Shown one piece after another: positions 11,908-46,275 of a stretch of 50,338 bases of DNA. Position 1 is the stretch's first letter. Every line of letters begins with the position of its first letter. This DNA is from Trachipleistophora hominis. Its lineage: Eukaryota; Microsporidia; Pleistophoridae. A model generated the notes under the pieces. It searched no databases. It worked only from the letters and a program-made list of their open reading frames with translations, and had not been told where the DNA came from. The stretch is from NCBI GenBank assembly GCA_000316135.1, contig JH993832.1, forward strand, positions 85,598-135,935. The letters run 5' to 3'. Both the position numbers and the translations under genes were made by a program.

Positions 11908-12561
11908 ATGGTTTTATGTATTTTTTACTTTATATGCGGAGCCATGAATCATCGCCTTAATTACATGCCACACACGTATACATCAGATGATAATGGTGAT
12001 AATAACGGTATATATTCTTACTCTTACCATGATCGAAGAAATCCAGAAGATAATTCACTCTATAAATATAAAAATAAGACTGACGATATGATGAACTTTG
12101 ATCAACGATTGTACCATAACATAGAACAAGTGTTAAGGAAACGGTCTTTATATAACACTTACCATAATAATGGCATTATTGACTACAATAATAGTGTCAA
12201 AGAAAAAGTTAATCGGGGAAATGCTACGCCGGGTGAATATGACAATTTCAAACAGATGGAAAAGGAAGAAATTCGTACAATGAATGAAAATCAGCCAATT
12301 GCTGGTGAAACAAACAATGTAAACAAGGAAAAAAAGAAATTTAATGTGTTGAAGTGGTTGGAAAACTACGATGATGAGATGGAGGAGGACTCAGAAGCAG
12401 AATTGCAAAAAATACTAGAAGATGAAAGGAAGAAACAGGAAGAAGAGGCAAAAGAACAAAAAAAGAAACTTGAGACAAAAGAAAGAGAAAATGCGAAAGA
12501 AAAAGAAAATCGAAGGATCCGTTTTCTGCAATGGGTTAAAAGAAAACTAAAAATCGAGTGA
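11908..12561 (+). CDS. Small secreted paralog D
   Basis: 217-residue protein with an N-terminal hydrophobic leader (MVLCIFYFICGAM) read as a signal peptide. The mature part begins Tyr/Asn/Asp-rich and holds SYHDRRNPEDN, which matches SYDRRNHEDN in the next gene (13446-14021). The C-terminal 80 residues form a strongly charged Glu/Lys helix (coiled coil-like, about residues 145-205) ending RRIRFLQWVKRKLKIE; the next gene ends HKNRFLQWARHEYNVE. VLKWLENYDDE also parallels VVSWLYEDNEE next door. These two genes are therefore a recent paralog pair within the secreted family. Function unknown; secretion is inferred from the leader. Confidence 0.8.
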   Translation: MVLCIFYFICGAMNHRLNYMPHTYTSDDNGDNNGIYSYSYHDRRNPEDNSLYKYKNKTDDMMNFDQRLYHNIEQVLRKRSLYNTYHNNGIIDYNNSVKEKVNRGNATPGEYDNFKQMEKEEIRTMNENQPIAGETNNVNKEKKKFNVLKWLENYDDEMEEDSEAELQKILEDERKKQEEEAKEQKKKLETKERENAKEKENRRIRFLQWVKRKLKIE

Positions 12562-13445: not shown

Positions 13446-14021
13446 ATGTTTCTTCTGTTTGTAAGTTTTTCGTATTGTTACTACAGCAATGATGTTCTTG
13501 GTTCTTACAAAACCGATAAGCCACCGTTTAACCCAGTGGATCGGCATTCATGGTCTTATGATCGGAGAAACCACGAAGATAACATAAATTTTCGAAATGC
13601 AAAAGAAATTGTACGAGAAAATCCTGAACCATCGTATTTTGATCAGCAAGTACAGATTACAAACTTATTTGATGCTGCGTTATCTGGATATAGTAGTAGA
13701 TTTAACAAATTCAGACGTATTAATAATAGAATGAATAACATACGCTTAGCAATAAAGCAAAACGAGTGTGTTGTGAACGATAAATACGTTGGTGAAGAGC
13801 CATTAAACGTTGTGTCTTGGCTTTACGAAGATAATGAAGAAGAGAAAAAAATGGATAAAGATTTGCAACGAGAAGTAGAAAACAACGTCATGCATGCCAA
13901 GGAAAAGCGAGATAGACTTATGATAATGGCTGAAGAACACCTTAAAAACAGACGATTAGAAGACCGTGAACATAAAAATAGATTTTTGCAGTGGGCAAGA
14001 CACGAATATAACGTTGAGTGA
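13446..14021 (+). CDS. Small secreted paralog E
   Basis: 191-residue protein with a signal peptide (MFLLFVSFSYCYYS). SYDRRNHEDN at about residue 36-45, VVSWLYEDNEE at about 120-130 and the tail HKNRFLQWARHEYNVE align in order with the gene at 11908-12561, so the two are tandem paralogs. The protein here is shorter because the Glu/Lys helix before the tail is shorter. One unpaired cysteine in the mature chain. It ends with TGA, which shows that TGA is an ordinary stop in this genome. Function unknown; effector-like by architecture. Confidence 0.82.
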   Translation: MFLLFVSFSYCYYSNDVLGSYKTDKPPFNPVDRHSWSYDRRNHEDNINFRNAKEIVRENPEPSYFDQQVQITNLFDAALSGYSSRFNKFRRINNRMNNIRLAIKQNECVVNDKYVGEEPLNVVSWLYEDNEEEKKMDKDLQREVENNVMHAKEKRDRLMIMAEEHLKNRRLEDREHKNRFLQWARHEYNVE

Positions 14022-14587: not shown

Positions 14588-16321
14588 CTATGGACAATAA
14601 TTTACTGTATCACCACTTCGTGTACAATAGCCTTTTTGTTCCAATGCTGCTACTCGGTCACTAACTTTTATTCTACCACCCTCGTCATACAAATCGCTAA
14701 GCTTGCACTTTTTGATTCTCTTTAACTTCCTCATAATTCTTGCATCAATTTTATAGTCGTCATTTTGCGCAATAGATGATGTTTTATCCCTCAACAATCT
14801 AAAATCAGGACATAAATTTGAATCTCTCGTGATGAGAAACGACAAATTATCACTCATTATACTGCATATAGGATCGATGTGGTCATAAAATACATCATGC
14901 TCAGTTTTGTTCTTAAGAAAACTCTTGAAAAAGTCTCTTTTATCCTCGATACACATAAATTTCGTTTTCCTGATCTTCTTATAGATAATATTTTTGTTTC
15001 CGTAGTTATCAATGACATATTTTATCATTTTATATTGAAATAAAGTGCAAATAACCACAAAACCTTCAATTCTTATCTTCAGGGTGCTAAGGGTCTTATT
15101 ATACGCAAAATCACAGGATATCTCGGGCGGAACAGAAAAAGTAAGTTCCTCATACTTCGGCCACCTGAAATCGAGAACAGGCTTCTCGCTGTTCTGTATC
15201 ATCTGCAATGATTTTCTAAATATTTTGTTCCGCATTACCATTTTGCCTCTTCCTGCGATATCAAATACTTCCAGAGGTATATTTTCGTCCATATTGGTAT
15301 CGACGTTTTCAGTAATCTCAGTAACCGTCACCCGTCTATTTTCCTGGTTTTTCTCCAACATTACGTCGCATTCCTCGCTCACATCCTCTCTCTTCAATAT
15401 CTTGTTCGCTAAGTATGTCCTATAAGTTTTTTCAAACGTATCAATCTGATTTAACGATTCCAAAATGAAATTCAAGTTTTTCTTGGGCTGTGATTGCAGC
15501 CTGTACACGTTTCTGATAAATATGTCCTCGTTCCTATTCAGAAACTGCTTAAACTTGCCAAGTATATTGCCGAACAGATTCACATGTAGCATGTACTCAA
15601 ATGAGAAATTATTATTAAGACACTCTTCAAATTTTCTCGTGAACAGATTATACTGATTTGCCCGTACAAACAAATTAAAAAGATCTGGAAATTTCTCAGT
15701 CATCGATATTTCATAAATGTTCTCAAATTTGTTCAAATAAAGATCAAGAAAGCACGTCTCAATTGTCTTAAAGTCCAAGATTCCTTTACTCTCCCTCTCA
15801 AGTATCCTAAAAATCATGCTCAGTTCCTCCTTCTTATCCGAAGCTTTGCTTATCTCCAAGAAGTAGTTATTTATTATATTCTTCTTTACATGTCTAAAAA
15901 CCACGTTATACACCTTGTACCTCTTCAATACATGAATTGTTTCCTCATCTATCGTACTATTCTTTACAAGTATTTCGTTCTGCAACTCTTCTATGTTTTT
16001 GAGCATGTATTTCTTGTATACGTTTTTGTACCTTTTGTACAGCTTTAATCCCTTGATCGGAGAAAAGATTACACAGAGCAAACTGATCAACTCCCTGCAC
16101 TTTCTTTCATTTTGAACAAAAGACTCTAAATCAACGTATTGCACTTCGTTAATGTACATCTCAATCAGCTCGATTATCTTTTTGATGTACAATTTGTCGT
16201 GGTTCAACAAGGAGATGTTAGAGGCTATCTCAAGTATACTTGCGTATCTCATTGTAGGCTTGTTCGTGAACATATTGGTGAGAAAAATATTCAGAGAGGG
16301 CCAGTAGACCAGGTTCATCAT
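14588..16321 (-). CDS. Divergent cullin-family protein
   Basis: 577 residues, ATG ATG start. The N-terminal 330 residues are helical, in keeping with cullin repeats. FEKTYRTYLANKILKRE (about residue 297) matches the conserved cullin stretch around Y-x-x-x-LA-x-x-LL. Then come WP.....FSVPPEI (about 387-401), where cullins have the WP...LP segment of the cullin-homology domain, and a C-terminal winged-helix domain (about 524-577): DARIMRKLKRIKK, then ..KVSDRVAALEQKGYCTR....VNY. That domain resembles the cullin tail with its IVRIMK neddylation segment and terminal Y-x-Y. Cullins scaffold RING ubiquitin ligases; APC2, the cullin-like subunit of the anaphase-promoting complex, is an alternative. 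Start supported by CCCTTAGT directly upstream of ATG. It is shorter than typical cullins (about 750 aa), as is usual in microsporidia. Confidence 0.75.
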   Translation of the reverse strand: MMNLVYWPSLNIFLTNMFTNKPTMRYASILEIASNISLLNHDKLYIKKIIELIEMYINEVQYVDLESFVQNERKCRELISLLCVIFSPIKGLKLYKRYKNVYKKYMLKNIEELQNEILVKNSTIDEETIHVLKRYKVYNVVFRHVKKNIINNYFLEISKASDKKEELSMIFRILERESKGILDFKTIETCFLDLYLNKFENIYEISMTEKFPDLFNLFVRANQYNLFTRKFEECLNNNFSFEYMLHVNLFGNILGKFKQFLNRNEDIFIRNVYRLQSQPKKNLNFILESLNQIDTFEKTYRTYLANKILKREDVSEECDVMLEKNQENRRVTVTEITENVDTNMDENIPLEVFDIAGRGKMVMRNKIFRKSLQMIQNSEKPVLDFRWPKYEELTFSVPPEISCDFAYNKTLSTLKIRIEGFVVICTLFQYKMIKYVIDNYGNKNIIYKKIRKTKFMCIEDKRDFFKSFLKNKTEHDVFYDHIDPICSIMSDNLSFLITRDSNLCPDFRLLRDKTSSIAQNDDYKIDARIMRKLKRIKKCKLSDLYDEGGRIKVSDRVAALEQKGYCTRSGDTVNYCP

Positions 16322-17581: not shown

Positions 17582-17764
17582 TCAACTGGTTTCTTTATCA
17601 AGTTCGTCCGCTATTGCAGGCTTTTTTGTTACCAACTTTTTTTTCGCTTTCATTCTTGGACTAGGAATCATCTTAGGGTCTGGTGGTACTGAAAAACTAG
17701 ACCCTGCGTATTTCTCATTCATTTTGTCAACCGATTCTTTGTGTATTTTTTTCTTATCCGTCAT
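17582..17764 (-). CDS. Minimal EDC1/PNRC-type decapping activator (candidate)
   Basis: 60-residue basic protein, ATG start. Residues 18-38 read KYAGSSFSVPPDPKMIPSP, with Y19-A20-G21-x-x-F24 followed by the proline-rich segment I33-P-S-P36. This is the layout of the short motif in yeast Edc1 and animal PNRC proteins: a YAGxxF activation segment followed by an LPxP-like segment. In those families it binds Dcp1 and stimulates Dcp2 removal of the mRNA cap. The remainder is Lys-rich and probably unstructured, as in the family. The match is a short linear motif, so chance cannot be excluded, but spacing and residues agree closely. The gene stands alone, between the cullin and endonuclease III genes on the same strand. 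The opposite-strand frame over the same bases is regarded as a shadow. Confidence 0.6.
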   Translation of the reverse strand: MTDKKKIHKESVDKMNEKYAGSSFSVPPDPKMIPSPRMKAKKKLVTKKPAIADELDKETS

Positions 17765-18208
17765 TTACAAGGATCGGTATTAATTTTTTAAAAAATCTCC
17801 TTCAATTTTAGTGTGCAGCCTTCCACCTAAACAAGTATTGTTGGACAAATATAAATTAAAACGGTGTTAATAACAACATAATGATATAACTGATGTAGCT
17901 CCGTTATCCAGTGATTATTCAATATTATATTCTACTAATGGTAGAATACACCGCGATCAAAGTTTATTTTTATGACTACTTGGTTACTTTTCCAAATTCT
18001 TGTTTCTTTGTATTCTAAAAATTGAATAAACATAGGTCGCAAGGCCGCGGTTGGTGCTCAGCGCGCCAGGAAAGTTTGTTTAGTGTGAGAAGCGTTAATT
18101 AAACTGACTTTCAACAAAAAAAATGAATAAACATTGGTTTCACAATGCGAGACTGTTAAGTACGAGGTGTTAAAAACGTGTAATCATTTATTATCCACCA
18201 TATATGGT
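17765..18208. other. Intergenic spacer
   Basis: AT-rich except for the short GC-rich decayed repeat at 18030-18095. No gene recognised. Confidence 0.5.
18030..18095 (+). repeat. Diverged LINE 3'-end repeat
   Basis: AAGGCCGCGGTTGGTGCTCAGCGCGCCAGGAAAGTTTGTTTAGTGTGAG has the same order as the conserved copies: GGCC element, second hairpin (GGTGCTCAGCGCGCC, stem GG.GC/GC.CC), then A-rich link and TGTTTAG..TGAG. It stands out by GC content. Confidence 0.5.
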
Positions 18209-18912
18209 CTAAAAACTAAATTTTTTCCCGTACTTACAACAATAATTCACCACACACTCATTACACTTAGGTTTCTTTGGCAGGCATACAGTTTGACCAA
18301 ACCCCACCATCACCTTGTTAATTTGTCCCCATTCTTCTTTATCATAGATCTGTTCAAGTTGTATTCTGGTCTCTTCTGGAGTCTTAGTTGTAACTACACC
18401 CAGTCTATTAAATATTCTGTGCACATGTGTATCCACACCTATTCCAACAGTTTTATTACACGCTATTTGTAAATAAAGAAATGCTATTTTATTACCAATT
18501 CCTGGTAATTTTACGAGCTCATCATATTCTGTTGCCATTTTTCTGTTAACAAAATATTCTGCTATCATTTTTATGTTCTTAGCCTTCTTAATGTAATAAT
18601 TGGCATTTTTGATTGAAGAGCTCAACTCATCAAGCGAAAGTAAGCTGATGGTATAAGGAGAAATACCTTCGCCGTATTTTCTTACCAGCAATTCGTTAAG
18701 ATTATGGATTGTGGTGTATGTTGTCTTATCTCGTGTTTGCTGAGACAGTATTAGCATCATCAATACTCTAAATTTCCTATGTTCTTCATTTTTGTGAACG
18801 GTACACACGAACATCCCATCGTATCGACCGGAGCAACCAGATGTTTCCTTTGCTCCTTTATCACTTGAATAACTTCTTTCACAGGGGATCCATGATGATG
18901 TTTCCTAATCAT
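18209..18912 (-). CDS. NTH1: Endonuclease III homolog, 1-base deletion near N-terminus
   Basis: Base-excision repair DNA glycosylase/AP lyase. The main frame (ATG at 18814, 201 aa) has LILSQQTRD (substrate pocket helix), the helix-hairpin-helix LPGIGNK with catalytic Lys109, catalytic Asp128 in VDTHVHR, and the 4Fe-4S cluster C177-x6-C184-x2-C187-x5-C193. The eukaryotic N-terminal segment is found in another frame: ATG at 18912, then KEVIQVIKEQRKHL and APVDTMG, which matches the APVD..G segment of human NTH1. The two frames join at a GGG run (18815-18817 on the plus strand as CCC). One extra base there would give a continuous protein of about 234 residues with family spacing. So the gene is either a sequencing or assembly indel or a young pseudogene; the 18814 start alone would lack a conserved segment. 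Confidence 0.88.
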
Positions 18913-21049: not shown

Positions 21050-21400
21050 TTAAGGATATAAATGATGATGTAATGAAGTTGAACGGATGGGAACGGCAGG
21101 AGGAGGTATTAGAGGTGCGGGATAATGTGGATTCGGAAATGATTGGTTTGTGTTCGGAGAGGTATGAGGAGGTGGTAAGGAGCAACAGTGGTCTAAAGGA
21201 TGACGTCGACGAAAGGGTCGCACGACTGCAAGGTGTTCATTATCAGGTGGATTGAATGCTCCGGTCGAATGAGTAGCTGCATTTGGTGCGTTTTTCTGCT
21301 TTGGAGATGGTTTTCTTGTTTGTATAGGACTATTTAGTTGATCCGGCCTATTATATTTCCGGTTGGACAAGTAATTATTTGTTATAGGTGTGTAAACGCT
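21050..21400 (-). pseudogene. Proline-rich protein C-terminus, cut by the N gap
   Basis: Minus-strand frame open from the gap edge (SVYTPITNNYLSNRKYN...) to a stop at 21050. It is rich in Pro, Asn, Ser and His, with PPP and HHH runs near the end, and GC-richer than the flanks. Its upstream part is lost in the N run. The sequence on the other side of the gap (21718-22300) is a decayed coiled-coil region on the same strand, so both may be one broken gene, perhaps a retroelement gag-like or other low-complexity protein. No domain recognised. Confidence 0.4.
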
Positions 21401-21717
21401 NNNNNNNNNNNNNNNNNNNNNNNNNNNNNNNNNNNNNNNNNNNNNNNNNNNNNNNNNNNNNNNNNNNNNNNNNNNNNNNNNNNNNNNNNNNNNNNNNNNN
21501 NNNNNNNNNNNNNNNNNNNNNNNNNNNNNNNNNNNNNNNNNNNNNNNNNNNNNNNNNNNNNNNNNNNNNNNNNNNNNNNNNNNNNNNNNNNNNNNNNNNN
21601 NNNNNNNNNNNNNNNNNNNNNNNNNNNNNNNNNNNNNNNNNNNNNNNNNNNNNNNNNNNNNNNNNNNNNNNNNNNNNNNNNNNNNNNNNNNNNNNNNNNN
21701 NNNNNNNNNNNNNNNNN
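21401..21717. other. Assembly gap
   Basis: 317 bases of N. Any reading frame drawn across it is meaningless. Confidence 0.99.
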
Positions 21718-22300
21718 ATTATATTTTTCTTTAAAATAGATACTAGCGCTGTTCTCATACCACTTTTGCTAATATTTTTCTTAAATCTTCTATATTTGCA
21801 TAAAACTTGATGGCACAAAGTATCAGTATCCACACTGGTGGCTAGTTCAGCGAATTGTTAATATTATCTTGTAATAGCGAAAGCCCCGTGGCGACCGAGT
21901 ACATATCTTCTACGATGATGTATATCATGGTCTCAAGCAAGCTAACATTATATGTACTAATGTTTGTGATAAGTTTACATATCTCATTTTGTAAGTTTTC
22001 AGCCTCCTTTTTTACATACCTAATTCATTCCAACGTGTCCTCTGTGCACCTCTCGACCATTTCATTTTGTAATTTATCGCACAGTTTTTCAAAACGCTTC
22101 TTTTTCTATATCTTTTCTCTGTTCCTTACCAATTTAATAAAGTGCCAACAAAATTCAAAAAAACGATAATGAATATCGTGTTATATCGCTTCAAAATTAG
22201 AAACGTTTGTTAGATTCCCTCTCACATGTTTTCCGCTTGTAATTCCTCTATTAACGAGCTACTCCTCTCCGTATTCAGAATTTCGGTTTTGAATGCAAAA
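21718..22300 (-). pseudogene. Decayed coiled-coil protein gene
   Basis: Minus-strand reading gives runs of helical sequence interrupted by stops and shifts: SSSLIEELQAENM then stop (about 22255); KRFEKLCDKLQNEMVERC, an in-frame TGA, then YVKKEAENLQNEICKLI (22100-21990); a stop near 21850; and, in the next frame, VDTDTLCHQVLCKYRRFKKNIS up to the gap. The heptad-like LQNE repeats suggest a former coiled coil. The parent protein is not recognised. Confidence 0.45.
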
Positions 22301-30918: not shown

Positions 30919-31581
30919 TTATGAATTGTCATCAGGTAACTGCATGTCTTGCGCTTTGTGCACGGCATCCATGACATCCGGCGACTCGTATATGACATTG
31001 GGGTCTAACACAACCTCAGGTGGCTGTAAATTGATGTTCTCAACAAATTGCAGATCCTCGATGCCTGTGAGCTTCCTAGCAGCAACGAGAAAAGGCACCT
31101 CAAAATGGTGGTTGCTCTTAGCCGATATGTCCACATAACAAGTGATATCCCGGCTAAGGTGCTCCCTGATGTATTTCTGGTTCACTTTCCTGTCTTTAAG
31201 ATCAATTTTATTACCGCAAACTATCACCGGTATATTAACGTTGTTCTGAGTGGTCAGCAGGCGTAGCTTACGCAACCATGTCTCAACATTCCTGAACGTA
31301 ATACGAGAGGTAACATCAAACATTATAATTGCTGCACTTGCACCGATGTAGTACACATCATTGAGCTGGGCGTACATCTCCTGGCCTGCTGTATCCCACA
31401 CTTGAAATGATATGTCAGTGTTGTAATTTGTCTTGAACGTCACGTCCCGAACATCCACACCAATTGTAGCGATGTACTCCCTTCTGAAAGAACCTTCTTT
31501 TATCCTTTGCAGGTACGTTGTCTTACCTGTGCCACCATCTCCTATTAATATTAGCTTGTATTGATTGAATTGCTGGGCCAT
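30919..31581 (-). CDS. GSP1: Ran GTPase (nuclear transport)
   Basis: 220 residues, close to the family length (about 216). P-loop GDGGTGKT (14-21), effector/switch I with TIGVDV (39-44, Thr39 at the Mg-binding position), switch II WDTAGQE (62-68), NKID (124-127) and SAK (153-155) for guanine. DVTSR, LKDRKV and the YYIGA segment are the Ran version of these regions rather than Rab. The C-terminus has the Ran-type switch PPEVVLDP and ends in a short acidic LPDDNS in place of the DEDDDL tail. No C-terminal cysteines, so no prenylation. Ran-GTP directs cargo binding and release by importins and exportins. Start confirmed by ACCCCCTATAA directly upstream. Codons are less AT-biased than in neighbouring genes, consistent with high expression. 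Confidence 0.97.
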   Translation of the reverse strand: MAQQFNQYKLILIGDGGTGKTTYLQRIKEGSFRREYIATIGVDVRDVTFKTNYNTDISFQVWDTAGQEMYAQLNDVYYIGASAAIIMFDVTSRITFRNVETWLRKLRLLTTQNNVNIPVIVCGNKIDLKDRKVNQKYIREHLSRDITCYVDISAKSNHHFEVPFLVAARKLTGIEDLQFVENINLQPPEVVLDPNVIYESPDVMDAVHKAQDMQLPDDNS

Positions 31582-38339: not shown

Positions 38340-39527
38340 TCAAAACTCGTAGTAAAATTTTTCCTCAAACACATTAACATTGACGTAAACACTGGCAAAT
38401 AAAATCTTGAGCTCATCATACTCCCAATCGAGTTCATTAAGACTTTGTAAAAATAGTAAAACCTCATTAAAATCCTTACTAAGAATTTCTTTCCTCAAAT
38501 TTACAACTAGAGAAACTGCAAAATATATAACAAAAAGCTCATAATTACTTGTAGCGAGCATTGAATCTAAGAAAAGAAGATAGTATTCAATCTTAAATTC
38601 TCGCACAAAGAGACAATTAAACCACCGAAATGCAAACATGTGTAATTCAAGTCCAAGATTGGTAATGTGGGCGTATAAAATTGGATCAACCATTTGAAGC
38701 ACTCTCCTGAGCTTCTTTATTGCCTTGGTTATTCCCTGTTGCCCGTCTATAAAGTAATCTTGAAATGTATCGAGTAGTTTCGAAAACGTGGCATACACCG
38801 TAGATTCAACAAAAAATTCGTTTTTATACACTTCTATGAGTGGAATGAGTAGATCCGCCATTCCTTGTACGTAGCCGATTGCCGGTCGACGTTTGGCCAC
38901 AATTTTTAGAATATTGACATAAATAAATTTCAAGGATATATTATTATATACAAGATGTTGGCTTGGTATCCGATCAACATCAATTTCTATTTGCTTTGCT
39001 ACCTTCCTATCGACATCAATTTTAAACTGCACATGAGACACGTAACAACTGCTGCTCCCTGAAATTTCATTTATATTCAGGATTTTCTGGAAGTATACGT
39101 TATTATTTTCAACTATTTCTTTGTAGTATGCATCAGTCTGTAAAGAATTTATCTCTAAAAGCAACCGGTATACTTTATTACGATGATGATGCGGGACGCC
39201 ACACCATGTATATTGCCGTAATTTTGTAAGATTGATTGTTGGTGAGTTGAGCGCATTTTCTATGAGGGCGTCTTTGTTTCTAAGGTCTATGGGGATTGTA
39301 TAACATGGACGAGGGTTAATACGATATTTTATTTTATTCAGTCCTGGACCGTGTAGACGCCGGATGATAAATGAAATAGAAAAAATGGGACAAATGTATT
39401 GCGTAAAAATACATTTTTGGTAATAAACGTGTCCATTACATCAATTGTGGCCTTTTCCGTTTTTGAAGATAAGATTGCTGACAACTATTTTTTCATCAAA
39501 AACGCGCTTACTTATTGCTTTACTCAT
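38340..39527 (-). CDS. Gyp1-like TBC-domain Rab GAP, interrupted by TGA
   Basis: Frame of 395 codons from the ATG at 39527, broken only by TGA at 39441-39443 (codon 29). After the stop no in-frame ATG occurs until deep inside the catalytic domain. TBC domain from about residue 100: LRQYTWCGVPHHHRNKVYRLLL, IDVDRIPS with Arg finger R186, and AIGYVQGMADLLIPLIE with Gln finger Q221. GYVQG.(N/A)DL..P..E is characteristic of Gyp1/TBC1D22. These enzymes speed GTP hydrolysis by Rab proteins at the Golgi and endosome. TGA is a normal stop here, since other genes end with it. So the gene is either a recent pseudogene, contains a base error, or starts at an unusual codon after the stop. The C-terminal half is helical as expected. 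Confidence 0.8.
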
Positions 39528-39569: not shown

Positions 39570-40800
39570 GCATAGTTTTTCAAAAAAGCGTCTATTTTTC
39601 CAAAAACATGTTTATGCATTACCACTATATACTTCACTCAACTTAACACACTCTTCTGGTCCACTGGGATCGATCATGACCACCGGCTTTTAGTTCATAG
39701 AAGAAATCGGTGCGCCGCCTTGTGCAATAATTTCGCACGCATCCTCAAAACAACAGAAAGATATGTTGCTACCGCAGCAGTGACCTTAACAGGCAAGTTA
39801 TAACTTGCATGGGATCCCTCTCCCAGGATTATGCCAAGAGATTCCTTTTCTCGGGGATTTTCACATGTGTTTAGTTCCTGGTAATTTCTCATCCAGTCAA
39901 GGAACCTTGTTCTGTACTCGGGCCATCTCTCACATCTCTATAGGAGGTGCTATGCAGTTTCCCTTTCCTTCTTCCCGCACAATGGGCATTTTTCTCTATA
40001 AATCGGAGCGATTGCGCTGTATCTAGCGAGGCCATAGGGATATACATAAGTGCGCCGATTCGCATTTTGATTAATACAGCCCATCCGCTGTAAATCGCTG
40101 GATTAGCGACGACGATCTTCCAAGATAGTAGTAGCCAATTAATTGGCTCCACCTGCCTAAACCGGCTTATCATACTCCCATCAGTGTATGACAGCCCATC
40201 GATCATCCTGGACTTGACAGCTTGAATTGCCTTACGTTGTGTGGCTGGTATTTCACAGTGTAACAGACTGTGCAGCCAAAACTCGTTCCGGTGATCCAGG
40301 TGGCACTCGAACACTTGAATGGCTGATTCATTAGCTCACCAATTGTTGTTCGATTGGCCTTCCATTTCAGGAAGGCGCACGTCCTTGACTTTACTGCCCA
40401 CATAGCTACGCACACAATGCGCAGCTTCTGATAGGCCGCCTTCCTGTAGTAGCTAGAACCACAAGCCGGTACGTCCTTTAATGCGTGATCTATCACTCGC
40501 TGCAAAGGCGCCAGGCGAGCAGCTACATACTTCTCCCAGGCCAAATACCATTGTTCCACACTTACCGATGTCCAGTGACATCTTTCAACGTTCGCACCAG
40601 TCGCTTATCTTCTGCGGGCTGCTCTCCAATTCGTAAGCAAACTCTGCAAGTATAACAGCATCGTCAGCAAACAGCAGGTCGGAAATAGATCACGCGCCTG
40701 GCTGCATTGCGACTCCGCTAAGGTCGTCGAATAAGTCGTTGATGTACAGATTAAACAGAATCGGCGATGCTGGGCATTTTTGTCTAACCTCGCCTTTAGT
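39570..40800 (-). mobile_element. 5'-truncated LINE (non-LTR retrotransposon), decayed
   Basis: Read on the minus strand from about 40800: reverse-transcriptase palm sequence CPASPILFNLYINDLF, then stop-interrupted DLLFADDAVILAE (FADD catalytic box at 40660-40671), KMSLDIGKC, and thumb/C-terminal regions in two further frames (40559-40203 and 40314-39889), including a Trp-rich segment and the remains of a C-terminal Cys/His motif. The last coding piece ends at 39695. It is followed by CTATGAACTAAAAGCCGGTGG, the two hairpins, AGAAGAGTG and an AT tail. The 5' end including the endonuclease and fingers is absent, as is usual for LINE insertions. Several stops and frameshifts make it inactive. 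GC content is far above the flanks. Confidence 0.85.
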
Positions 40801-41216: not shown

Positions 41217-43493
41217 TTAACCGTCTAACAACAATTTTTTCTTTTTATGGGCGCAAAAATCAACATCATTTTCAGAAAATATTTTGATTTTCAAAGACTC
41301 GAGTTCAACAGGTAAACAATCGAAAATGTGTTCGTATTCCATTATAGACCTAGAAAGAACCATGTGCTCGATCCTTTTATGTTTTCTAAGCAGTTGCATT
41401 GTTTGTAAATCCAAATTGTATAAATTAGCACGTAAATGTTTATAAATATTTGTGTCCACTATTTCAAAAGTGGTGAGCTTGTCAGGTATATTTCTGATTA
41501 TATCATTGCTAAAAAACGCACAATCAACGATTAACGTTTGCAAACATACTAATTTTTTCAGCGTCTTCAAATTTTCTTCGTTTAAGCCACATCCTACTAG
41601 ATTTAAATATTTCAATTTGTTTCTTATGTTAAAAGTGAAGATTTCACATATAAAAATGTTCGTTTTAAAATTTAAAAGATCGGCGCTTTCGTTATTTGAA
41701 TGCTCACGAGACAATTCGTATTTAGAAAGCTTCTGGGATAGCCATAGATTGTTACCTAGGGAGTTAAAGACCTCATCTTTGGAAATTGATAAAGATGGAT
41801 ACGAGGCAGATTTTTTGGTATGGTCAAAACTTCTAACTGTCAAGTTTTGTAAATTAATACATTTCGTTAAACAGTACTTAAGATATTCTTCGCTCAAATT
41901 GCAGGCAATGTCTAATTCTCGGATATTATCTAATGATGGAAAGCTTATCTTAAATGTTGATTCATCGTTTAATCCAAAAATTAAACCAAAAGCTTCTAAG
42001 TTTTCAACCTTTGACAGATCATACATGCCAGAGCAATGATAAAAACGGACTTCGTTGCATCCTCGATTGATACTAAAACGTGAACTAGTGGCAAGTCTTA
42101 TTTCACGTAAAATTACAGCATGTATGTGACCTGGGAGTTCAAAATAATCTTCTATATCCACATTCTCTAGTATTAACGTCTTAACTCTGGATAGAGCGGT
42201 TAAAAGGTTTTTTATATCATGAAATGCTGTATTTTTCAATGTTACTTTTTCTAAAGACATAGAGCATGAGGGATTGATGGCAACTTTAGGAGAGTCCAAT
42301 TCTAAATGTTTACATCCTCGACCAAGCACTAGCTCGATACCCTGTGCTGTTTCAACGCGTTTTAAACGGATAGTCTCCAAATCATCAGAGAATACAACAC
42401 TGTGTTTAAAGGTATAATTTTCAATTTGCAATAAACATCCTTGACTTGTTCCCGTGCATCTATCAAAATACAACGTGTTGTGCCTGTTGAGTTCCATCTT
42501 TCTCAATCCGGCAACTCCTGTCATGTCGATTAGACCCTCAAACTCAGAGATAGAGAGAAGAGAAATGCTTTCATTAATTCGGATAGAAAAATCTGATGTT
42601 ATAGTGCAGTTCGTTAACAAAAATGCTCTAACACTTGGCGCAAGATCAAAATTATGGTTCATATTCATGGTAGAAATGTTTAAGTAGGATAGTAAAAGAT
42701 GTATTGTGGGATTGTAGGTGATTGATGTTGCGTTGGTTAATGTAATTGCTTTGAGGTTCTTTGCATTTGAAGCATCAATATTTATTTCGGAAGAACATAC
42801 TCGGACACTCTCTAGGCAGTTGTTTAACCGCAATGCTGAACCTTCGTTAGCAGTGATTTTGGCAAGAGATAAAAAATTAACATTTTTTTGGATCATAAAG
42901 ATGTCGCAGATTCGCTTATTAACGAGTTCCAACTTAGAAGGGACTTCTGAACAACTGCTGGTTAAATAAAACTCCTCTTCTGGCGAGATCTGTATTACTG
43001 ATTCATTAGTGGTGATATTTGTTAAGATACCGGCGATATTGATCGGAAATTTGCATTCTGACACATAAATATCTTCACAATAATTATGTTGAATAGTTGG
43101 TATATGTATATTAGAATATAAAATGGGTAACGTCAACGTTTTATCTTCATGTATCGGTGTGATATCCATATCACCATCTTTTCTTGTTATAACGATTACT
43201 TTAGATGAAATATTCAACTCTTTGAGATCAGAAAGTTCAAGTTGGTTAAGCGATGTAACATTTGGAATGGAAATAACACCTTTAAATTGATCAAATATTA
43301 AATTATTGCACTGCTGACTGTTAATAAGTAATAACTCAGCTATTTTAACTCGAAAGAATTTTGCTGTATCAACATTCATCTCAATAACCAACTTATCAAA
43401 TGATAGGCTTCTTATAAAAATGGCGAAGGATTCTTGGTTATTTTTGCGACTTCCAACGAACCTGAATATTCTGTCAAACATATAGCATGACAT
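41217..43493 (-). CDS. LRR gene, C-terminal segment
   Basis: 758 codons; an ATG at 43493 exists but overlaps the middle segment out of frame, so this reads as the continuation after a frameshift. Many irregular LRRs (VTSLNQLELSDLKELNIS; VAGLRKMELNRHN; LLTALSRVKTLILENVDI; LDNIRELDIACNLSEEYLKYCLTKCINLQNLTV; KLKYLNLVGCGLNEENLKTLKKLVCLQTLIVD). Such solenoids bind proteins; the partner is unknown. Ends KKKKLLLDG by a second frameshift. Confidence 0.8.
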   Translation of the reverse strand: MSCYMFDRIFRFVGSRKNNQESFAIFIRSLSFDKLVIEMNVDTAKFFRVKIAELLLINSQQCNNLIFDQFKGVISIPNVTSLNQLELSDLKELNISSKVIVITRKDGDMDITPIHEDKTLTLPILYSNIHIPTIQHNYCEDIYVSECKFPINIAGILTNITTNESVIQISPEEEFYLTSSCSEVPSKLELVNKRICDIFMIQKNVNFLSLAKITANEGSALRLNNCLESVRVCSSEINIDASNAKNLKAITLTNATSITYNPTIHLLLSYLNISTMNMNHNFDLAPSVRAFLLTNCTITSDFSIRINESISLLSISEFEGLIDMTGVAGLRKMELNRHNTLYFDRCTGTSQGCLLQIENYTFKHSVVFSDDLETIRLKRVETAQGIELVLGRGCKHLELDSPKVAINPSCSMSLEKVTLKNTAFHDIKNLLTALSRVKTLILENVDIEDYFELPGHIHAVILREIRLATSSRFSINRGCNEVRFYHCSGMYDLSKVENLEAFGLIFGLNDESTFKISFPSLDNIRELDIACNLSEEYLKYCLTKCINLQNLTVRSFDHTKKSASYPSLSISKDEVFNSLGNNLWLSQKLSKYELSREHSNNESADLLNFKTNIFICEIFTFNIRNKLKYLNLVGCGLNEENLKTLKKLVCLQTLIVDCAFFSNDIIRNIPDKLTTFEIVDTNIYKHLRANLYNLDLQTMQLLRKHKRIEHMVLSRSIMEYEHIFDCLPVELESLKIKIFSENDVDFCAHKKKKLLLDG

Positions 43494-44371
43494 GTATCAT
43501 CTGAAAAGATGCCAGGTATTCTAAACTCTCCTTTACATTCAGAAATTTGGATTCGCTTAAAGTTCTTATGGATCTCAATATGGTTAGATTCCGAAACGGT
43601 CATATTATAAAACTCAAACTCTTCTACCTCTGGTCCAAATCGTATCGTTTCGTGTATTCCCAGATCTGATAAATATAAATAACCAGAATCTCCGTCGTCG
43701 TTCTTTTTAAAACATAAATTTTGTCCAGGTACATAAAACCCGTACCCTCTAACACCGAGTTCGATTATTTTTAAACGCTGAGTTTCTCCTAATTCTACAT
43801 ATCCTACGCAATTGTTCAGAGAGATTTTCTTAATATTTGCGTTAAGTTTTAGGGAACCGATTGTTCTGAAATCAACACGTGACATTTTAATTGAAGAAAT
43901 AGTGGGAAGAAAATGCACATGTTCAATTAAAAACGCATTTCGTATCATCACATCCACCATTCCGTTGTTCTCCTTTACTATTCTCGAATGAAAGTGTCCC
44001 TGTTCAAAACGAACTGCTAATGGAGAGCTGGCAAAACCTGCAAAATCCGCACATAATTTCAATTCATCTAATGTAATTTCTTCTAAACTTGCTGGAAATA
44101 TTATGTGCATATTCCGCTCTGTCACAATTTTTTTCAAAGCAATCCTTCGTATATTAGATGGCACATTAACACTAGAATTTCTAATTATCGCATTCTCTAT
44201 TGTTAAACGTTCGATGATATCTGTACATTGTAACAGTTCAATTGAGAACGCTCTGTCAAAATCAATATTAAATAATTTTTCGATATAAGGAATATGCACA
44301 ATGCCTGTGCTTTGTATTATTTTGATTTCTTTACAACCACATCCGATTTTCAGTTCGTAATTGTCCGTTAT
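43412..44371 (-). CDS. LRR gene, middle segment
   Basis: Same frame as the preceding segment, open from directly after its TAA. An ORF-only view would start it at a GTG (44299). Repeats of about 22-25 residues with L/I/V at the conserved positions (VPSNIRRIALKKIV; FPASLEEITLDELKL; LNANIKKISLNNCVGYVELG). It ends in SGSLEVAKITKN then a premature stop; the next frame continues with QESFAIFIRSL. No proper start of its own, so it is not an independent gene. Confidence 0.65.
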   Translation of the reverse strand: MTDNYELKIGCGCKEIKIIQSTGIVHIPYIEKLFNIDFDRAFSIELLQCTDIIERLTIENAIIRNSSVNVPSNIRRIALKKIVTERNMHIIFPASLEEITLDELKLCADFAGFASSPLAVRFEQGHFHSRIVKENNGMVDVMIRNAFLIEHVHFLPTISSIKMSRVDFRTIGSLKLNANIKKISLNNCVGYVELGETQRLKIIELGVRGYGFYVPGQNLCFKKNDDGDSGYLYLSDLGIHETIRFGPEVEEFEFYNMTVSESNHIEIHKNFKRIQISECKGEFRIPGIFSDDTCHAICLTEYSGSLEVAKITKNPSPFL

Positions 44372-45643
44372 TTACGCTTTTTCTAAAATAATTGTTTCAA
44401 GAGTATCCGGCAAAGTTAAATTGCAGTTAATTTTTGATTCAGAGATTGACAACACTTTTAAATTCAAAGGTAATTGTGATCTTTCACTAAAAATACATTC
44501 CTTATAATAAATATGTAGCTGCTTGGTGGACATATCTTTAAAACTTAGATGGTTTTGTACACCTGTCAATCGAAAAATACATACCTCGAGACAATCAAGT
44601 GCAAGGAACTCGCATTTCAATACCTTGTTCAGTTGCTCAGCAACCTTCTTGGTCGAATCTTTCTCGCTCGTAGAATTTTTTTCTATTCTATAAAAAACGT
44701 CTGAAAAATCGATATCTAATGTTAAACCGAACCCTGATGATATATTCTCATAATATTTGCACAAAAGTTCATGATTACAAATCAAGAAATATCCATCCAT
44801 ACGTATATAACGAGGCAGGAAAAAATAACACAAACTATAAATGTCAGCGTATGCAAGCGATCTACTATCACTGTCCCGTCCAGCTATCGCTGCGTTGCCA
44901 AATTTATCTGTAGTAGAGATATCGATGCAATCTAACATTTCACATATTGCATTTTCTAATTCCTGACGAAAAGGCGTGTTTGTAGAATGTTTGGTTTCTG
45001 TCTCCCTGTTTTTTTCTGTTTGTTCTTTATCTATAACACTAAGTCTGCTAGACAATTCGGAATCATCGAGGAGCTGCTGCGCCAGCGTTTGTAATAAAGG
45101 CGTTTTGTTGTGTAAAAATGTTAAAAGGTGGCAAATAGTGATATAAAGTTCATCATCAGATAGTTTTACATTGCTGTCCGTTTTTAAATTTACCACTTTC
45201 ATGAACAGAGGCTTTGTGACAGGAATTTGAATCGTACGATATTTGTATTCACCATCCTTTGGATCGTCCCGTTTAACAGATACATCTTCATTCCTATTTT
45301 TAACTACTGAATTATCATATGAGCATTCCATATCAGTAGTATCGATTCCTTCCATCGATTCATCTTCGTCTCTAATATTTGTGTTACTATTAGAATGTTC
45401 TTTTATTTTTGGTCTAAGAACCTTTAAAGGATCGTTGACAGTATCGTAATCTTCTATTTTGAACACACTTAACGTTTTATTTTTTATTATATCCTCGGAT
45501 AGATGTGTAAAAACATTCATCAGATTCATATCTTCAAGGCTATCACATAAAATAGTATCAGTTGGCGTGTTTTCCCTTTCGCTATAAAAACATAGAATCC
45601 ATTTTGTCATAATATTCGAAATGTGAGGTAAATGGCAGTTCAT
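44372..45643 (-). CDS. LRR gene, N-terminal segment
   Basis: 423 codons from ATG at 45643 to the in-frame TAA. N-terminus MNCHLPHISNIMTKWILCFYS is at best a weak leader. Residues 70-230 are acidic and low complexity. Residues 265-345 look folded (YADIYSLCYFFLPRYIRMDGYF). From about residue 345 irregular leucine-rich repeats start (LALDCLEVCIFRLTGV; LPLNLKVLSISES; LPDTLETIILEKA). Microsporidian LRR proteins commonly have such an N-terminal domain before the repeats. Confidence 0.75.
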   Translation of the reverse strand: MNCHLPHISNIMTKWILCFYSERENTPTDTILCDSLEDMNLMNVFTHLSEDIIKNKTLSVFKIEDYDTVNDPLKVLRPKIKEHSNSNTNIRDEDESMEGIDTTDMECSYDNSVVKNRNEDVSVKRDDPKDGEYKYRTIQIPVTKPLFMKVVNLKTDSNVKLSDDELYITICHLLTFLHNKTPLLQTLAQQLLDDSELSSRLSVIDKEQTEKNRETETKHSTNTPFRQELENAICEMLDCIDISTTDKFGNAAIAGRDSDSRSLAYADIYSLCYFFLPRYIRMDGYFLICNHELLCKYYENISSGFGLTLDIDFSDVFYRIEKNSTSEKDSTKKVAEQLNKVLKCEFLALDCLEVCIFRLTGVQNHLSFKDMSTKQLHIYYKECIFSERSQLPLNLKVLSISESKINCNLTLPDTLETIILEKA

Positions 45644-45834: not shown

Positions 45835-46275
45835 AAAGTGGTTTTTTTATTAAAAGTTAGTTTAATTATCACCTTATATCATATCATCTAACTAAACACA
45901 CTCTTCTGGTCCGCTGGGACCGACCATGGCCACCGGCATTTGGTTCATGGAGGAAATTAGTGCGCCACCTCGCGCAACGCCTTCGCGCGCACTTTTATAA
46001 CAACAGAAAGGTATGCTGCAACCGCAACAGTGACCTTAACACGCAAGTCGTAGCTTTCGTGATACCCCCCTCCCAAGAGTACCCCGAGGAATTCCTCTTC
46101 TCGGGGATTTTCATATATGTATAGTTCCTGGCATCTCAACATCCAGCCAAGGAACCTTGATCTAGGTCCGGCCCATCTCTCACACCTCCATAGGAGATGC
46201 TATGCGGTTTCCCCTTCATCCTTCCCGCAGAATGGGCACTTTGCCCCATAAACCGGTGCGATTACAATACATTCT
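45835..46275 (-). mobile_element. 5'-truncated LINE 3' end
   Basis: Minus strand from about 46275: CPFCGKDEGETA, stop, HLLWRCERW, the C-terminal CCHC-type knuckle (C-x2-C ... H-x4-C) of LINE reverse transcriptases, then FLGWMLRCQELYIYENPREEEFLGVLLGGG to a TAA at 45957. The 3' UTR follows: CCATGAACCAAATGCCGGTGGCC, ATGG, TCGGTCCCAGCGGACCAGAAGAGTG, TGTTTAGTTAG and a T/A tail ending near TTAATAAAAAAACC. It is better preserved than the copy at 39.6 kb (NPREEEFLGVLLGG against NPREKESLGIILGE), so both come from one family. Confidence 0.85.

What the first reader, a model, noticed from the sequence alone, without database searches (positions are those of the whole stretch)
17582..17764. 60-residue protein with an EDC1/PNRC-type decapping motif
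KYAGSSFSVPPDPKMIPSP reproduces the YAGxxF activation segment followed by a proline-rich LPxP-like segment that Edc1 and PNRC proteins use to bind Dcp1 and activate Dcp2. Nothing else is left in this protein but Lys-rich disordered sequence, so it would be a minimal decapping activator in a reduced eukaryote.
Basis: partly seen in the sequence, partly recalled or inferred. Interest (0 to 1): 0.75.

Follow-up and report, generated by a model that had tools for sequence, protein, structure and literature searches.

The report
Tiny mRNA-decapping activator in a microsporidian
A 60-amino-acid gene in the human-infecting microsporidian Trachipleistophora hominis carries the paired motif by which yeast Edc1 and animal PNRC proteins switch on the enzyme that removes mRNA caps, which suggests that this switch survived extreme genome reduction; it is probably real but untested.

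Summary
The minus strand at 17582-17764 encodes a 60-aa ORF with KYAGSSFSVPPDPKMIPSP. It is the only PNRC-profile match in the held 5.5 Mb (E 0.033; 3 of 14 bacterial controls also ring below cut-off). Its 18.3 bits miss Pfam's cut-off of 21 but exceed the 17.7 of a crystallised K. lactis Edc1 peptide. YAGxxF followed by [LIVM]PxP never arose in 200 Mb of simulated DNA. Codon usage is gene-like, rank 4 of 59 free small ORFs. The genome is Trachipleistophora hominis (Dcp2 100% identical to that species' entry). The arginine that docks the YAG tyrosine is kept in 12 of 13 Dcp2 rows aligned with S. pombe, T. hominis included; the hinge position is I or V in 13 of 13.

Not shown: Dcp1 (no match; about 65% of the published assembly held, no positive control), orthologs (none), transcription, activity. 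The ORF appears unannotated.

Best reading: a minimal Edc1/PNRC-type activator that clamps Dcp1-Dcp2 in its active form; a new member of a known kind.

The parts
17582..17764 (-). 60-aa ORF, ATG to TGA; candidate minimal Edc1/PNRC-type decapping activator; not found in the protein database, so apparently unannotated
   Evidence: translation; codon usage 0.222 bits/codon, rank 4 of 59 small ORFs outside long ORFs (31 training ORFs mean 0.131, sd 0.097; small-ORF mean -0.094); no candidate, not even itself; single copy in the held genome
17693..17710 (-). YAGSSF: Dcp2-activating YAGxxF motif (residues 19-24)
   Evidence: motif definition from PMC5861098
17657..17668 (-). IPSP: LPxP-like proline segment expected to bind the EVH1 cleft of Dcp1 (residues 33-36)
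   Evidence: alignment with PNRC2 (LPKP) and K. lactis Edc1 (LPKP)
17663..17710 (-). Stretch matched by Pfam PNRC PF15365 (profile 1-16 of 20)
   Evidence: E 0.0021, 18.3 bits (cut-off 21); only match in the held 5.5 Mb, E 0.033
17711..17755 (-). Residues 4-18, Lys/Glu-rich, modelled as most of a helix (4-19) running up to the YAG motif
   Evidence: single-sequence model, pLDDT about 85 over residues 1-20
17780..17795 (-). T-tract/A-tract TTTTTTAAAAAATTAA 16-31 bases before the ATG; promoter-like by position only
   Evidence: by eye a similar A/T tract lies before the Ras-family gene at 30919-31581; neither the strict TATA pattern nor a CCC motif is present in the 120 bases shown

Best explanation
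The ORF is a real, unannotated gene of Trachipleistophora hominis whose product works like the activating segment of Edc1/PNRC2. The IPSP segment would bind the aromatic cleft of the Dcp1 EVH1 domain. Tyr19, Ala20 and Phe24 of YAGSSF would thread between the Dcp2 regulatory domain, hinge and Nudix domain: Tyr19 stacks on Dcp2 Arg28 (S. pombe Arg33), Ala20 packs on the hinge valine (S. pombe Ile96), and Phe24 plugs the Dcp1-Dcp2 interface. This would hold Dcp2 in its closed, catalytic form and speed cap removal. The lysine-rich remainder may hold RNA. Shown here: ORF, motif, coding-like codon usage, a complete-looking Dcp2 with conserved docking residues. Inferred: expression, the presence of Dcp1, binding and activation.
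For: PNRC profile match, the only one in the held genome. PDB sequence match to human PNRC2 5kq1_C, 17.5 bits, 10 of 20 aligned residues identical; a PNRC2 20-mer matches K. lactis Edc1 (6am0_C) with only 13.0 bits (a different query length, so a rough comparison). Calibration: 19 residues of the K. lactis Edc1 peptide score 17.7 bits on the profile, this protein 18.3 whole and 21.4 as a 20-mer, a PNRC2 20-mer 34.2. Both motifs together absent from 200 Mb of simulated DNA. Codon usage rank 4 of 59; the antisense frame that is also open scores -0.173. Dcp2 present with regulatory and Nudix domains. Of 13 Dcp2 rows beside S. pombe (T. hominis plus 12 hits), the Arg33 equivalent is kept in 12, the hinge I/V in 13, and the Trp43, Asp47, Phe36 and Tyr92 equivalents in 13. 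PMC5861098 (sections 7 and 8 read) reports that R33A and I96G abolish Edc1 activation without large defects when Edc1 is absent, so their retention points to an activator still in use.
Against: Whole-protein score below the Pfam cut-off (18.3 vs 21); the profile also rings below cut-off in 3 of 14 bacterial controls, so sub-cut-off matches do arise without decapping. Ile replaces Leu in the proline motif. No ortholog in the protein search or in two contig collections that are not meant to hold microsporidia. Dcp1 found by none of one family and four protein queries and not among ORFs of the 126 kb that I could read (best E 0.69). No strict TATA box or CCC motif upstream. No transcript evidence.
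Confidence: 0.72

Rival explanations
1. A real small gene, but the YAG/PxP match is a coincidence: the product is a lysine-rich basic protein (for example nucleolar or ribosome-associated) unrelated to decapping.
For: Coding-like codon usage says nothing on function; the profile score is under the curated cut-off, and 3 of 14 bacterial controls also give sub-cut-off matches at E <= 10; a weak phmmer hit to ribosomal protein S7 exists (E 1.1), which is noise level.
Against: Both tandem motifs in the right order and spacing, the only profile match in the held genome at E 0.033, none in 200 Mb simulated, and a Dcp2 with the Edc1-docking residues in the genome.
Confidence: 0.14
2. Not a gene: a chance open frame in a 1.9 kb intergenic stretch.
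For: 81 ORFs of at least 50 aa lie in this window, many of them surely not genes; a 69-aa frame on the other strand overlaps it; no strict TATA or CCC element upstream; no entry in the protein database.
Against: Codon usage above the mean of the long ORFs; motif statistics; PMC4589312 (passages seen) reports 32 missed genes of 25-84 aa in E. cuniculi, all confirmed as transcribed by RACE, so microsporidian annotations do miss genes of this size.
Confidence: 0.1
3. A PNRC mimic aimed at the host's decapping enzyme rather than at the parasite's own.
For: The best sequence match in the PDB is to a mammalian PNRC2 (17.5 bits); a PNRC2 20-mer matches yeast Edc1 less well (13.0 bits).
Against: By eye no signal peptide (MTDKKKIHKESVDKM), no evidence of export, and the parasite's own Dcp2 keeps the docking residues.
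Confidence: 0.04

Closest known systems
Metazoan PNRC2 (PDB 5kq1_C, 4b6h_C)
   Same: YAGxxF-S-x-PP-x-P...(L/I)PxP in the same order and spacing; 10 of 20 aligned residues identical
   Different: The PNRC2 chain in PDB 4b6h has 135 residues, and PNRC2 works with Upf1 and Smg5 in NMD (PMC8984151, passages); here 60 residues and IPSP for LPKP
Yeast Edc1 (K. lactis peptide 6am0_C; S. cerevisiae Edc1)
   Same: Edc1 is described as a small, intrinsically disordered protein with a YAG motif and an LPxP motif (PMC8984151, passages); similar score on the Pfam profile (17.7 for 19 residues of K. lactis Edc1, 18.3 here)
   Different: The K. lactis protein is longer (motif tyrosine is residue 359); FSVPP here versus FATEAP
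S. cerevisiae Edc2
   Same: Small decapping enhancer of the same group
   Different: Edc2 lacks the YAG motif (PMC8984151, passages); this protein has it

Membership tests
Edc1/PNRC-type decapping activators | YAGxxF Dcp2-activating motif | tested here: met
   YAGSSF at residues 19-24
Edc1/PNRC-type decapping activators | Proline-rich Dcp1-binding motif (LPxP) directly C-terminal of YAGxxF | tested here: inconclusive
   IPSP in register with LPKP of PNRC2; conservative L to I change, binding untested
Edc1/PNRC-type decapping activators | Partner Dcp2 with regulatory domain and the Arg and hinge residue needed for activation | tested here: met
   Dcp2 at L001:1489-2199; Arg28 aligned to S. pombe Arg33, hinge Val aligned to Ile96 (Val for Ile)
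Edc1/PNRC-type decapping activators | Partner Dcp1 (EVH1) in the same genome | tested here: inconclusive
   Nothing; no positive control; 5.5 of about 8.5 Mb held; PMC5113988 states Dcp1 is present in microsporidia (section read)
Edc1/PNRC-type decapping activators | Orthologs that retain the motif | tested here: inconclusive
   No candidate (needs three shared 5-residue words, about 33-105 aa only); search viral and prokaryote collections
Edc1/PNRC-type decapping activators | Stimulates Dcp1-Dcp2 decapping | not testable with these tools
   needs a decapping assay
Pfam PF15365 (PNRC), formal membership | Whole-protein score at or above the curated 21 bits | tested here: not met
   18.3 bits, so it is not filed as a formal Pfam member; the 19 residues of K. 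lactis Edc1 that I tested also fall short at 17.7

The most novel reading that the evidence does not exclude
An Edc1/PNRC-type activator belongs to the minimal eukaryotic decapping machinery: microsporidia, otherwise stripped of regulators, kept a protein pared down to a short helix plus the YAG/PxP switch, and across microsporidia it is co-conserved with the Dcp2 arginine it docks on, with orthologs overlooked because they are tiny and unannotated.
Probability: 0.35. Interest if true: 0.65.

Novelty: new member of a known kind. Interest (0 to 1): 0.5.

Why it matters
In reduced eukaryotes it is open which regulators of mRNA decay are dispensable. If this protein activates Dcp2, the Edc1/PNRC switch has outlasted extreme reduction, and a 60-aa natural activator would be a convenient minimal system for decapping biochemistry. 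It also shows how short-motif proteins can drop out of microsporidian annotations. My paper searches found no report of a microsporidian Edc1 or PNRC: microsporidia+Edc1, 0 papers; microsporidia+PNRC, 1 paper, on mRNA-cap chemistry, of which I saw only the listing and the start of the abstract; microsporidia+Dcp1+Dcp2, 2 papers; microsporidia+mRNA decay+decapping, 4 papers; microsporidia+P-bodies+Dhh1, 1 paper. The library holds open-licence papers only.

Tried and rejected
Dcp1: Pfam DCP1, S. pombe (18), Arabidopsis (31), Drosophila (55) and an S. cerevisiae N-terminal part (65) as queries gave no match in the held genome; a protein search with S. pombe Dcp1 gave 4 proteins, three named Schizosaccharomyces and one unnamed, so no microsporidian Dcp1 to search with (19); a DNA pattern for the W.K..(I)EG stretch gave 2 places, both in short frames unlike Dcp1; an HMM from five Dcp1 sequences over ORFs of the 126 kb held gave best E 0.69. 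Taken as uninformative, because XRN_N (32), PAT1 (56) and LSM14 (57) also gave nothing, none of these searches had a ringing control, and 5.5 Mb is held against 8.5 Mb published (PMC3486916 abstract).

Orthologs: protein search empty (8); viral contigs (48 pattern matches, none confirmed, 33) and prokaryote contigs (247 pattern matches, none confirmed, 34). No second copy in the held genome (70). Introns: the relaxed T. hominis intron pattern quoted, limited by me to 200 bases inside, has no match on the minus strand between 18209 and 16322 (59). Rfam: nothing at gathering scores in the window (61). Repeats around the ORF: a few weak pairs (62). A model of the complex with Dcp1-Dcp2 was not tried: the tool folds one chain.

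Counts that drop rows: the Dcp2 alignment used 12 of 14 hits; P0006 (identical to the query) and P0019 (Nudix-only fragment, 36% coverage) were left out. The codon test left out ORFs holding N, and its 31 training ORFs are chosen by length only.

Full report
WHAT IS THERE. The minus strand at 17582-17764 encodes a 60-residue protein from ATG to TGA, with a TAA codon directly before the ATG. It is MTDKKKIHKESVDKMNEKYAGSSFSVPPDPKMIPSPRMKAKKKLVTKKPAIADELDKETS. It lies in a stretch of about 1.9 kb between two longer genes on the same strand: an HhH-GPD DNA-repair protein at 18209-18814 (PF00730, E 5.6e-20) and a 577-aa ORF with no Pfam match at 14588-16321.

MORE THAN CHANCE. Pfam's PNRC profile finds it at E 0.0021 (18.3 bits, cut-off 21), and across six frames of the held genome it is the only match at E <= 10 (E 0.033). 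The same search rings, below the cut-off, in 3 of 14 bacterial control genomes, so a sub-cut-off match by itself proves little. Against the PDB its best matches are the two PNRC2 chains (E 0.043 and 0.047). As a yardstick I scored 19 residues of the K. lactis Edc1 peptide whose complex with Dcp1-Dcp2 has been crystallised: 17.7 bits, so a proven activator also falls short of the Pfam cut-off; the matching 20-mer of this protein scores 21.4 and a human PNRC2 20-mer 34.2. That PNRC2 20-mer matches K. lactis Edc1 with only 13.0 bits, less than this protein matches PNRC2 (17.5), though the query lengths differ. In 200 Mb of first-order Markov DNA with the window's composition, YAGxxF occurs 942 times in six frames, but never followed within 2-12 residues by [LIVM]PxP. 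That pattern was written after the fact; the profile searches were not.

IS IT A GENE. Length is no argument (81 ORFs of at least 50 aa in the window). Codon usage is: trained on 31 non-overlapping ORFs of at least 150 aa from the window and contig C1, the ORF scores 0.222 bits per codon (training ORFs mean 0.131, sd 0.097) and ranks 4 of the 59 ORFs of 45-90 aa that do not overlap them (mean -0.094, sd 0.161); the antisense frame that is also open scores -0.173. Upstream lies a T-tract/A-tract 16-31 bases before the ATG, by eye like the one before the Ras-family gene at 30919-31581, but neither a strict TATA nor a CCC motif, the two elements that PMC3486916 reports upstream of 194 and 977 T. 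hominis genes (passages). The protein has no entry in a 5.8-billion-sequence database that does hold a T. hominis protein, so it appears unannotated. That is plausible: PMC4589312 (passages) reports 32 missed genes of 25-84 aa in E. cuniculi, all confirmed by RACE.

THE ORGANISM AND THE PARTNERS. A Dcp2 gene at L001:1489-2199 (236 aa) carries the DCP2 domain (E 1.2e-18), matches S. pombe Dcp2 over regulatory and Nudix domains (E 6.4e-35) and is 100% identical to Trachipleistophora hominis Dcp2. The window is therefore from T. hominis, a microsporidian isolated from a patient (PMC3486916, abstract). I aligned the query with 12 of its 14 hits and S. pombe Dcp2. Of the 13 rows beside S. pombe, 12 have Arg at the Arg33 position (P0018 has Tyr, next to a gap), 13 have Ile or Val at Ile96 (T. 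hominis Val), and 13 have the Phe36, Trp43, Asp47 and Tyr92 equivalents; 11 of 87 regulatory-domain columns reach 12 of 13, and the Arg33 column is one of them. This bears on function because R33A and I96G in S. pombe Dcp2 block activation by Edc1 but cause no large defect without Edc1, and the Edc1 tyrosine stacks on that arginine (PMC5861098, sections 7 and 8 read). Their retention suggests that an Edc1-type peptide still binds in microsporidia; it does not prove it.

WHAT IS MISSING. Dcp1 was not found by family or by four protein queries, nor in the 126 kb that I could read. I draw no conclusion: the held genome is 5.5 Mb against 8.5 Mb published, no search had a positive control, and the conserved exonuclease domain XRN_N was also missed, although PMC5113988 states that microsporidia have Rat1, Dcp1 and Dcp2 (section 10 read). 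No ortholog of the 60-mer was found, but that search needs three shared five-residue words, and the nearest Dcp2 other than T. hominis's own is only 61% identical. There are no transcript data.

HOW IT WOULD WORK. By analogy with the solved complexes, IPSP docks on Dcp1 and YAGSSF threads between the Dcp2 regulatory domain, the hinge and the Nudix domain, limiting hinge motion so that the composite active site closes on the cap (mechanism of Edc1 from PMC5861098; its application here is inference). The N-terminal stretch is modelled as a helix ending at the tyrosine (residues 4-19; single-sequence model, mean pLDDT 74.2, pTM 0.27). The basic tail might add RNA contact; that is inference, prompted by the report that yeast Edc1/2 bind RNA (PMC8984151, passages).

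VERDICT. A probable minimal Edc1/PNRC-type decapping activator. I do not file it as a formal member of Pfam PF15365, whose cut-off it does not reach; I do claim that it probably works like Edc1/PNRC2, at 0.72. New member of a known kind, of interest because of where it is found.

Noticed in passing
window 39695-39892 (-) and 45957-46142 (-): Two short ORFs of 65 and 61 aa that are 63% identical over 57 residues with no Pfam match; likely pieces of a dispersed repeat or mobile element.
   Followed up: partly
window 11908-12561 (+) and 13446-14021 (+): Neighbouring ORFs with related C-terminal halves (33% over 80 residues) and, by eye, hydrophobic N-termini; look like a small tandem family of secreted or membrane-anchored proteins.
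   Followed up: partly
window 41217-43493, 43412-44110, 44372-45643 (-): Three adjacent ORFs with leucine-rich-repeat-like sequence by eye, the first two overlapping in different frames; of the two that I scanned (41217-43493 and 44372-45643) neither has a Pfam match over its cut-off. Could be one broken gene or a family cluster.
   Followed up: no
window 21375-21758: An open frame that is mostly N: the window holds 317 masked or unknown bases and this frame reads as a long run of X.
   Followed up: no
window 21073-21255 (+): 60-aa ORF with the best codon score of the 59 small free ORFs (0.461); a candidate small gene or gene remnant.
   Followed up: no
window 38340-38861 (-): RabGAP-TBC domain that starts at profile position 94 of 216; the N-terminal part of the domain is not in this ORF, so it may be truncated, spliced or broken.
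   Followed up: no
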